Position numbers and translations under genes: made by a program. A stretch of 64,000 nucleotides of DNA from Neisseria sp. 83E34. GTDB lineage: Bacteria > Pseudomonadota > Gammaproteobacteria > Burkholderiales > Neisseriaceae. The stretch spans positions 1 to 64,000 of the forward strand of contig NZ_LGYH01000012.1 in NCBI RefSeq assembly GCF_001308015.1, written 5' to 3'. Position 1 is the stretch's first letter. The number at the start of each line of letters is the position of its first letter. Below, in pieces: positions 55,580-57,616 of this stretch. The notes below the pieces were generated by a model. That model saw nothing but the letters and a program-made list of their open reading frames with translations, was not told the origin of the DNA and made no database searches.

Positions 55580-57616
55580 ATGGCTTATCAAGTTCTTGCC
55601 CGAAAATGGCGCCCCAAAACCTTTGCCGATTTAGTCGGCCAAGAGCACGTTGTCAAAGCTCTGCAAAATGCGCTCGACAAAGGCCGTCTGCATCATGCTT
55701 ATCTTTTAACCGGCACTCGCGGCGTCGGTAAAACCACAATTGCACGCATCCTAGCCAAAAGCCTGAACTGTGAAAACCCGAGCAACGGCGAACCTTGCGG
55801 ACAATGCCAAAGCTGTACACAAATCGATTCCGGCCGTTTTGTCGACTTATTAGAAATCGACGCTGCATCCAACACCGGCATCGACAATATCCGCGAAGTG
55901 CTCGAAAACGCCCAATACGCGCCCACTTCCGGCAAATACAAAGTCTATATCATCGATGAAGTGCACATGCTTTCCAAATCGGCATTCAACGCCATGCTCA
56001 AAACATTGGAAGAGCCGCCCGAGCATGTAAAATTCATCCTCGCCACCACAGACCCGCATAAAGTGCCGGTAACCGTATTGAGCCGGTGCCTGCAATTCGT
56101 GTTGCGTAATATGACCCCGCAACAAGTCGCCGACCATCTTGCCCATGTTCTGCGAGCCGAAAATATTCCTGCCGAACCTGCTGCACTTCAACTATTAGGC
56201 CGCGCCGCCGCAGGCTCCATGCGCGACGCTTTGAGCCTGCTTGATCAAGCCATCGCCATGGGCTCGGGCAAAGTAAGCGAAGAAGACGTGCGCCATATGA
56301 TAGGCGCGGTTGACAAACGCTATCTTTACGAACTGCTACAAAGCATTGCCGAGCAAAACGGAGCCGCCTTACTGCAAAAAGCGCAAGAAATGGCCGCACG
56401 CGCCATCGGATTCGACAGCGCATTGAACGAGTTGGCCGTGCTGCTGCAACGCATCGCCCTCTTCAAAACCGTACCCTCCGCTATCAGTCAAGACGACCCC
56501 GAACGGGACACCTTGCAAATATTAGCCGAGCATTTAGGTGACGAACAAATCCAGCTTTATTACCAATGCGCCATTCACGGCAAACGCGATCTCAGCCTGG
56601 CGCCGGATGAATACGCAGGCTTCGTAATGACCTTGTTGCGCATGCTCGCTTTCTCCCCGCTCGCCGCCGCAGGCCAACCAACCAACGGCCAAATCAGCGG
56701 CACCGAGCTACACACGCCCTCTACCGAAAAGGAAACCGGCGCAAAAAAGCCTATAGCCCTACCTGATCATTCCGGTCAGCCCGAAGCAGCCGAACCTTCC
56801 GATGTACAAGTTATCGAAGAAGCGACGCCTGAAAACAAACCGGCTATTGCTCCCGAAGCAGAGCAGGTAGAACCACCACCTTTTATTGAACCCATTATAG
56901 AAGCTCCTGTTTTTGCAGAAGCTGTACCGGCGGATACCATTTTTGAACATGCCGTGGCCGTTACCGCCACGCAGGCCGAAGAATACAGCCCGCCGTGGGA
57001 AGAAACACCGTCGGAACACGAAATATCCGCCACCCAACCCTACCCGGATTACCCGATCGATTACCCTCCCCCCTTCGACGATGAGGAAGCCAACCTGCTT
57101 CCATTGCCAGAATCCGAACACATAACGTATGGCAGCAATGAAGAAGAGGATGGCGTAGAAACGGATGCAGAAGAAACATTTGCGCCCATGCCCGAATTTA
57201 CGGCAGACAATTGGGCACAAATTTCATTCCGCCTTTCCCGCAAACTCGGCGCAGCACAAATGCTCACAAACCATGCGGCATGGGTTGATTTCGACACGGA
57301 AAACAAAGTATTGACACTTTCGCTTACCGCCAACGCTGCCAAAGAAGCCAAAAGCAAAGGCTTTTTTGACAAAATCCGAAACGCACTGGCCGAAGCCTAC
57401 GACATGCCCGACCTCAAGCTGCAAACCTGCGCCTGGGAAGAAAACCGCAACTGGGAAACGCCCGCCATGCGGAAAAACCGGCTCCAAATTGAGGGCCGCC
57501 AACGCGCACAACAGCTCCTTGAAAGCGACCCGGCATGTCAAAAACTAATGAATTTGCTCGATTGCCATGAGTGGAAAGCCGATACGATAGAGTTGGCTGA
57601 AAATATCGAAGAATAA
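55580..57616 (+). CDS. dnaX: DNA polymerase III subunits tau/gamma
   Basis: Clamp loader ATPase and organiser of the replisome. The 678-residue full-length (tau) form has the AAA+ P-loop GTRGVGKTT (45-53), zinc cysteines at 64, 73, 76 and 79, the Walker B IDEVHML, and sensor SRCLQF. A long Pro/Glu-rich linker (about 380-570) and a C-terminal domain for polymerase and helicase contact follow. A slippery site in frame at codons 388-390 suggests a shorter gamma of about 395 residues (see 56743-56766). A near uptake sequence is absent inside. Confidence 0.96.
   Translation: MAYQVLARKWRPKTFADLVGQEHVVKALQNALDKGRLHHAYLLTGTRGVGKTTIARILAKSLNCENPSNGEPCGQCQSCTQIDSGRFVDLLEIDAASNTGIDNIREVLENAQYAPTSGKYKVYIIDEVHMLSKSAFNAMLKTLEEPPEHVKFILATTDPHKVPVTVLSRCLQFVLRNMTPQQVADHLAHVLRAENIPAEPAALQLLGRAAAGSMRDALSLLDQAIAMGSGKVSEEDVRHMIGAVDKRYLYELLQSIAEQNGAALLQKAQEMAARAIGFDSALNELAVLLQRIALFKTVPSAISQDDPERDTLQILAEHLGDEQIQLYYQCAIHGKRDLSLAPDEYAGFVMTLLRMLAFSPLAAAGQPTNGQISGTELHTPSTEKETGAKKPIALPDHSGQPEAAEPSDVQVIEEATPENKPAIAPEAEQVEPPPFIEPIIEAPVFAEAVPADTIFEHAVAVTATQAEEYSPPWEETPSEHEISATQPYPDYPIDYPPPFDDEEANLLPLPESEHITYGSNEEEDGVETDAEETFAPMPEFTADNWAQISFRLSRKLGAAQMLTNHAAWVDFDTENKVLTLSLTANAAKEAKSKGFFDKIRNALAEAYDMPDLKLQTCAWEENRNWETPAMRKNRLQIEGRQRAQQLLESDPACQKLMNLLDCHEWKADTIELAENIEE
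56729..56766 (+). promoter_or_regulatory. Programmed -1 ribosomal frameshift signal in dnaX
   Basis: The heptamer A-AAA-AAG lies at 56743-56749, in the zero frame as GCA AAA AAG (Ala388-Lys-Lys). AAGGA at 56729-56733 is nine bases upstream, like the stimulatory Shine-Dalgarno site of E. coli dnaX. After a -1 slip the reading is GCC TAT AGC CCT ACC TGA, a stop at 56764-56766. A 6-bp stem (56763-56768 with 56774-56779) follows, at a spacing longer than usual. This would give gamma. Confidence 0.75.

What the first reader, a model, noticed from the sequence alone, without database searches (positions are those of the whole stretch)
56729..56779. Programmed -1 frameshift signal in dnaX, predicting a gamma subunit
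In frame at codons 388-390 the gene reads GCA AAA AAG, the same slippery sequence as E. coli dnaX. A Shine-Dalgarno-like AAGGA is nine bases upstream. The -1 frame hits TGA after five codons (Ala-Tyr-Ser-Pro-Thr), giving a product of about 395 residues that ends just after the clamp-loader core, as E. coli gamma does. A 6-bp stem-loop follows at 13 bases, longer than the typical 5-9 bases. The heptamer, frame and stop are seen; that slippage happens is inference.
Basis: partly seen in the sequence, partly recalled or inferred. Interest (0 to 1): 0.75.

Follow-up and report, generated by a model that had tools for sequence, protein, structure and literature searches.

The report
Neisseria dnaX frameshift site, inverted elsewhere
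A gene for the DNA-copying machine carries a conserved ribosome-slip signal that should yield a second, shorter protein, a known trick in this genus; in one related genus the same gene appears to be rebuilt so that the longer protein depends on the slip.

Summary
A_AAA_AAG is in frame at codons 381-395 in 40 of 45 same-genus genomes with a readable dnaX; the codon before it varies but always ends in A; a -1 stop follows within 13 codons in 40 of 40; anti-Shine-Dalgarno pairing is enriched; the genome has only tRNA-Lys(UUU), as E. coli does. The 6-bp stem-loop is no better than shuffled sequence (z -0.48), and structure close downstream is not enriched in the genus. Recode-2 already lists Neisseria dnaX, so this is a new member of a known kind. 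Following the gene through the family gave more: in genus g8 (6 of 6 readable) dnaX looks inverted. The zero frame stops just after C_CCA_AAA, a hairpin follows, and the tau C-terminus continues in the -1 frame, so tau needs the shift. Genomes with a detected tRNA-Lys(CUU) never carry A_AAA_AAG (0 of 19, against 40 of 60 others), though phylogeny confounds this. No frameshift product was measured.

The parts
55580..57616 (+). dnaX, zero frame: tau, 678 aa, stop codon included in the coordinates
   Evidence: ORF; Pfam PF13177, PF22608, PF12169 over their cut-offs and PF12170 (tau domain V) below its cut-off
56729..56733 (+). AAGGA, Shine-Dalgarno-like, 9 nt before the heptamer
   Evidence: the same 9-nt gap in 12 of the 12 genus genes that have AAGGA in the 18 nt before the heptamer; 16S tail GGATCACCTCCTT present in this genome
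56743..56749 (+). slippery heptamer A_AAA_AAG (codons 388-390 GCA AAA AAG)
   Evidence: in 40 of 45 genus genomes
56749..56766 (+). -1 frame tail Ala-Tyr-Ser-Pro-Thr and TGA; gamma of 395 aa
56763..56779 (+).
   Evidence: z -0.48, 58 of 200 shuffles fold at least as well

Best explanation
The window's dnaX makes two clamp-loader proteins by -1 programmed ribosomal frameshifting. Ribosomes reading GCA AAA AAG slip back one base on A_AAA_AAG, because the only lysine tRNA (anticodon UUU) pairs better with AAA than with AAG; pairing of the upstream AAGGA with 16S rRNA probably helps. Slipped ribosomes add Ala-Tyr-Ser-Pro-Thr and stop, giving gamma (395 aa: ATPase, lid and domain III); the others make tau (678 aa), which adds the C-terminal part with domain V. 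Shown here: sequence, frame, conservation, tRNA set, 16S tail. Inferred: that slippage occurs, its rate, and what gamma does. Across the family the recoding site turns over; in genus g8 the arrangement looks reversed, with tau encoded in the -1 frame after C_CCA_AAA.
For: Heptamer in frame in 40 of 45 genus genomes with a readable dnaX. The codon before the lysines is GCA 24, GAA 8, CCA 5, GTA 2, CTA 1, always ending in A; taking each of the five amino acids once, the chance of five A endings is about 9e-5 from the codon use of these genes. -1 stop within 1-13 codons in 40 of 40, median 5 against 12 at control positions. Anti-SD energy in the 18 nt upstream -5 kcal/mol or better in 34 of 40, against 11.7% of 5400 control windows. 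Of 52 tRNA places only two are tRNA-Lys, both UUU, the condition that a review gives for the slipperiness of the E. coli site (PMC5009743 section 21). Neisseria dnaX is in Recode-2 and in the GeneTack dnaX logo (PMC3711429, passages).
Against: No direct evidence of two products. Five of 45 genus genomes lack the heptamer. A -1 stop within 13 codons is also found at 53% of control positions. MFE of 40 nt downstream is -8.3 against -7.75 kcal/mol in controls, so a close hairpin stimulator is not seen. In-frame A_AAA_AAG occurs at 7 further places in the 345 ORFs examined.
Confidence: 0.9

Rival explanations
1. RNA polymerase, not the ribosome, slips on the A run (transcriptional slippage, as in Thermus dnaX), and gamma comes from mRNAs of changed length.
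For: A runs of 9 and 11 stand at nearly the same place in G065, G082 and both g6 genomes, so transcriptional slippage is plausible elsewhere in the family.
Against: The window's run is only 6 A, closed by G in 40 of 40 genus genes. Selection acts on codon phase and on the SD-like element, and the genome has a single tRNA-Lys species, which suit ribosomal slippage.
Confidence: 0.04
2. The heptamer is an incidental Lys-Lys in a loose linker; gamma is not made, or is made by proteolysis of tau, as reported for Caulobacter.
For: Five of 45 genus genomes lack the heptamer; 8 in-frame A_AAA_AAG occur in the 345 ORFs examined; Caulobacter gamma is proteolytic (PMC5009743 section 21).
Against: Retention of the heptamer in 40 of 45 with changing flanks, always A before the lysines, and anti-SD enrichment.
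Confidence: 0.06
3. For genus g8: tau is lost or its C-terminal half is translated from its own start, rather than being fused by a -1 shift.
For: No zero-frame tau. PF12170 matches only below its cut-off, and not in L153. Possible GTG starts exist in the -1 frame of five of the six genomes within the first 40 codons.
Against: C_CCA_AAA directly at the zero-frame stop in 6 of 6 (one codon earlier in G063), with a hairpin after it in 6 of 6, z -2.9 to -5.9. The -1 frame is open for 214-383 codons and matches other tau C-termini at E 1e-17 or better in 6 of 6, with low-complexity and composition corrections off. L155 and L157 have no ATG in it, and L151 has no start codon in its first 121 codons.
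Confidence: 0.1

Closest known systems
E. coli dnaX -1 programmed ribosomal frameshift (gamma from A_AAA_AAG)
   Same: Same heptamer in the same phase, SD-like element upstream, near -1 stop, product ending after the clamp-loader core, sole tRNA-Lys(UUU).
   Different: The -1 tail here has 5 codons, against 1 in E. coli (PMC5009743). No credible hairpin close downstream here, against a functional 11-bp stem in E. coli (PMC5009743 passage). None of 20 outgroup dnaX genes of the same order has the heptamer, so the two sites may be independent inventions.
Neisseria dnaX entries of Recode-2 and the GeneTack dnaX logo
   Same: Same genus by my reading of g1, same gene, same heptamer (PMC3711429 passages).
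   Different: I did not see the Recode-2 record itself; only its mention in PMC3711429.
Thermus thermophilus dnaX (transcriptional slippage on A9)
   Same: Two DnaX proteins from one gene; the A11 runs of g6 and A9 runs of G065 and G082 resemble it.
   Different: The window has 6 A closed by G and only tRNA-Lys(UUU); the review reports two lysine tRNAs in Thermus.
Reversed dnaX (tau by frameshifting; 17 genes of 12 genera in the GeneTack study, Chlorobium among them)
   Same: Genus g8: zero-frame stop at the shift site and tau C-terminus in the -1 frame.
   Different: The GeneTack paper ties 12 of its 17 genes to poly-A runs and favours transcriptional slippage; g8 has C_CCA_AAA with a hairpin, which suits the ribosome. 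The window gene itself is not of this kind. I have not seen which five genes lack poly-A.

Membership tests
dnaX genes making gamma by -1 ribosomal frameshifting | slippery heptamer in the right phase after domain III | tested here: met
   codons 388-390, heptamer 56743-56749; PF12169 ends at residue 361
dnaX genes making gamma by -1 ribosomal frameshifting | -1 frame stop shortly after the slip | tested here: met
   TGA after 5 codons; 40 of 40 genus genes within 13; 53% of control positions also do so
dnaX genes making gamma by -1 ribosomal frameshifting | conservation of the heptamer in relatives | tested here: met
   40 of 45 readable genus genes
dnaX genes making gamma by -1 ribosomal frameshifting | both products present in cells | not testable with these tools
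   needs proteomics or a reporter
full E. coli-type cassette (heptamer plus two stimulators) | upstream Shine-Dalgarno-like element about 10 nt before the heptamer | tested here: met
   AAGGA, 9-nt gap; enrichment in the genus
full E. coli-type cassette (heptamer plus two stimulators) | downstream hairpin starting about 5-8 nt after the heptamer | tested here: not met
   only a 6-bp stem after 13 nt, z -0.48; not enriched in the genus at 40 nt. So I file it as a frameshifting dnaX, not as the full three-part E. coli cassette
full E. coli-type cassette (heptamer plus two stimulators) | sole tRNA-Lys(UUU) | tested here: met
   two UUU genes, no CUU at 52 tRNA places; CUU pattern 0 hits in this genome
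transcriptional-slippage dnaX (Thermus type) | run of about 9 or more A | tested here: not met
   6 A in the window
reversed dnaX (tau by frameshift): the window gene | zero-frame stop at the slip site, tau C-terminus in the -1 frame | tested here: not met
   zero frame open to 678 aa
reversed dnaX (tau by frameshift): genus g8 | zero-frame stop at the slip site, tau C-terminus in the -1 frame | tested here: met
   6 of 6 readable g8 genomes; G060 had no dnaX match
reversed dnaX (tau by frameshift): genus g8 | fused tau product in cells | not testable with these tools
   needs proteomics or a reporter

The most novel reading that the evidence does not exclude
Within one bacterial family the dnaX recoding switch has been rewired under the influence of the lysine tRNA set. 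Lineages with only tRNA-Lys(UUU) can use A_AAA_AAG to make gamma; lineages with tRNA-Lys(CUU) cannot, and use other devices. In genus g8 this went as far as inverting the gene, so that the long subunit tau is itself made by a ribosomal -1 shift on C_CCA_AAA, whose A-site codon AAA is still read by the UUU tRNA, helped by a 7-15 bp hairpin. The inversion itself is likely (about 0.85); the tRNA as its driver is the bold part.
Probability: 0.45. Interest if true: 0.68.

Novelty: new member of a known kind. Interest (0 to 1): 0.48.

Why it matters
The window site confirms a known device in one more species. The family survey suggests that the device is evolutionarily labile: kept for its nucleotides in most Neisseria examined, not seen in the 20 outgroup genes fetched from the same order, replaced by other slippery sequences or A runs in some sister genera, and inverted in one genus where the tau subunit of DNA polymerase III would depend on frameshifting. 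The possible link to tRNA-Lys(CUU) would make the question why some bacteria use ribosomal and others transcriptional slippage in dnaX testable with one tRNA gene.

Tried and rejected
Downstream hairpin as a conserved stimulator in Neisseria: not supported. MFE downstream against control positions: 40 nt -8.3 and -7.75, 60 nt -16.3 and -13.7, 80 nt -25.1 and -19.9 kcal/mol. An inverted pair of DNA-uptake-sequence cores lies within 130 nt after the heptamer in 16 of 40 genes; that these cause the difference at longer range is my inference.

Bare heptamer frequency as evidence: rejected, since in-frame A_AAA_AAG is not rare in this genome (8 sites in 345 ORFs).

G076 (g10) as a second inverted dnaX: rejected. 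Its frame break lies before the linker, with no slippery motif of my list, in one draft genome; an indel or sequencing error is likelier.

Inverted dnaX outside the family: order sample, 291 of 300 genomes matched, but the output lists only the best rows. Among the listed rows the frames under 470 were G063 (g8) and three that stop at contig ends (G238, G247, G211), judged from contig lengths. Phylum sample, 146 of 150 matched, all 147 rows listed: the short frames lie at contig edges by their coordinates (of these only G413 was fetched), except G503, a 1.0-Mb genome with a short dnaX and no tau C-terminus in the 200 codons read after it in three frames. So none was found, in a partial census.

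Rfam on the window gene and on the six g8 loci gave no match over a gathering score. The count of 'other KK pairs' includes the site itself through an indexing slip, so I do not use it.

Rows dropped: of 83 family genomes, G027 and G069 (no dnaX match above paralogue level) and G060 and G073 (no match). L125 was cut short by my coordinates and replaced by L161. L160 and L165 (G027) held no dnaX. L004, one of the 11 named loci scanned, ends at codon 373.

Full report
The observation. The ORF at 55580-57616 (+) is dnaX (678 aa; Pfam domains). Codons 388-390 read GCA AAA AAG, so A_AAA_AAG lies at 56743-56749. AAGGA at 56729-56733 ends 9 nt before it. The -1 frame gives Ala-Tyr-Ser-Pro-Thr and TGA at 56764-56766, a 395-residue product. 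The 6-bp stem exists 13 nt after the heptamer, but 58 of 200 dinucleotide shuffles fold at least as well (z -0.48).

Which organism. TGCCTGTCTGAA occurs 429 times in 464 kb of this genome, ATGCCGTCTGAA twice. PMC3630211 (passages) describes the N. wadsworthii uptake-sequence dialect as AT-DUS with a T inserted; that this is TGCCTGTCTGAA is my reading. A N. wadsworthii-like genome is therefore likely. It shares genus g1 with 45 other genomes of the 83 family genomes searched.

Chance. In 345 ORFs of at least 150 aa (124,929 codons) there are 8 in-frame A_AAA_AAG, against 13.7 expected from codon frequencies. Only the dnaX site has one of five SD-like cores in the 16 nt before it. The heptamer alone is weak evidence.

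Conservation. Of 83 family genomes, 79 gave a readable dnaX start region: 45 of 46 in g1 and 34 of 37 elsewhere. In g1, 40 of 45 carry A_AAA_AAG in frame, with the first of the three codons at 381-395. The codon before the two lysines is GCA 24, GAA 8, CCA 5, GTA 2, CTA 1, so its amino acid changes while the last base stays A; the second lysine codon is always AAG, which makes up 13.5% of lysine codons in these genes outside the neighbourhood of the site. A -1 stop comes within 13 codons in 40 of 40 (median 5, control median 12, though 53% of control positions also have one within 13). Anti-SD energy is -5 kcal/mol or better in 34 of 40, against 11.7% of control windows. AAGGA occurs in 12 of the 40, always with the 9-nt gap. 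Close downstream structure is not enriched. The five without the heptamer are G012, G021, G036, G039 and G052, so the site can be lost.

Mechanistic precondition. PMC5009743 section 21 (read whole) explains the slipperiness of the E. coli site by the sole tRNA-Lys. This genome has 52 tRNA places; ARAGORN over stretches that cover all 52 finds tRNA-Lys(UUU) at two and no CUU.

Origin. None of 20 outgroup dnaX genes fetched from the same order, and none of 11 further loci of named records (L002-L012; L004 ends at codon 373), has A_AAA_AAG or C_CCA_AAG in codons 346-520; L008 and L011 have A_AAA_AAA further downstream. So the Neisseria site probably arose within or near this family, independently of E. 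coli; this is inference from a small sample.

Turnover in the family. C_CCA_AAG stands at nearly the same place in G003 (-1 stop after 10 codons) and G081 (after 1). A9 runs stand there in G065 and G082, and A11 runs in both g6 genomes. Genera g2, g5 and g7, the g10 genes, G004 and G066 show no candidate near this place from the motif list; of four g4 genes one (G005) has C_CCA_AAA at codon 401.

Inversion in g8. In 6 of 6 readable g8 genomes the zero frame ends after 377-381 codons, with C_CCA_AAA in the last two sense codons before TAA in five, and one codon earlier in G063. The main stem of a hairpin begins 4-6 nt after the heptamer: 15 bp in three genomes, 14 bp in one, 7 bp in the two more distant ones; z -2.9 to -5.9 against dinucleotide shuffles (two of the six segments are identical). 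The sequences fall into three types while the hairpin stays. The -1 frame is open for 214-383 codons and matches tau C-termini of other genera at E 1e-17 or better in 6 of 6, with filters and composition correction off. In 15 of 15 pairwise comparisons it has its fewest differences at codon position 2. Tau domain V is found below cut-off in three of the four genomes scanned; the window's own tau is also below cut-off. Predicted products are gamma of 377-381 aa and tau of 588-762 aa. C_CC.A_AA.A is on a list of shift-prone heptamers in E. coli (PMC4066793, passages). On the DnaX tree, drawn with a midpoint root, g8 lies outside g1 as two neighbouring branches, not a single clade. Searches for print on this: dnaX + Kingella (1 paper, judged by its title), dnaX + frameshifting + Neisseriaceae (0), dnaX + frameshift + Neisseria (13 listed, of which I read passages of PMC3711429 only), dnaX + GeneTack (5 listed). 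The reversed arrangement itself is in print (PMC3711429 passages; PMC5009743 section 21).

tRNA link. A pattern for the tRNA-Lys(CUU) anticodon arm hits 21 of 83 family genomes; the matching UUU pattern hits 82 of 83. ARAGORN confirms CUU in six loci. Among the 79 readable genomes A_AAA_AAG occurs in 0 of 19 with CUU and in 40 of 60 without (Fisher 8e-8). Carriers are both g6 genomes, all 14 of g10, four of seven g8 genomes and G003. Against a causal reading: the heptamer is confined to g1, so these are at best a few independent contrasts; G064 (99% complete, inverted) and G062 (80% complete, inverted) show no CUU by this pattern; G003 has CUU yet carries C_CCA_AAG; 20 genomes have neither heptamer nor CUU.

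Verdict. It is a new member of a known kind. The reversed g8 gene is the more interesting object, a variant of a known rare arrangement.

Noticed in passing
L151, L153, L154, L155, L156, L157 (genus g8 dnaX loci): Inverted dnaX: zero-frame stop just after C_CCA_AAA, hairpin, tau C-terminus in the -1 frame.
   Followed up: yes
L158, L159 near codons 374-378; L131, L135 near codons 381-384: A11 runs in both g6 genomes and A9 runs in G065 and G082 in the dnaX linker, Thermus-like candidates for transcriptional slippage.
   Followed up: partly
21 of 83 family genomes: tRNA-Lys(CUU) is present in g6, g10, part of g8 and G003, and not detected in the 46 g1 genomes.
   Followed up: partly
16 of 40 Neisseria dnaX genes, within 130 nt after the heptamer: Inverted pairs of DNA-uptake-sequence cores could form hairpins behind the slip site; none in the window gene.
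   Followed up: partly
L153-L157, dnaX linkers of g8: The tau linker varies much in length and holds two or three copies of an uptake-sequence core, partly read as Ser-Gly-Ser-Leu.
   Followed up: no
L148 and L162 (G076, genus g10): dnaX frame break before the linker in one draft genome, with no slippery motif of my list; likely an indel or sequencing error.
   Followed up: partly
L192 (G503, 1.0-Mb genome from the phylum sample): dnaX of about 374 codons with no tau C-terminus seen behind it: perhaps a gamma-only gene.
   Followed up: partly
   Followed up: no
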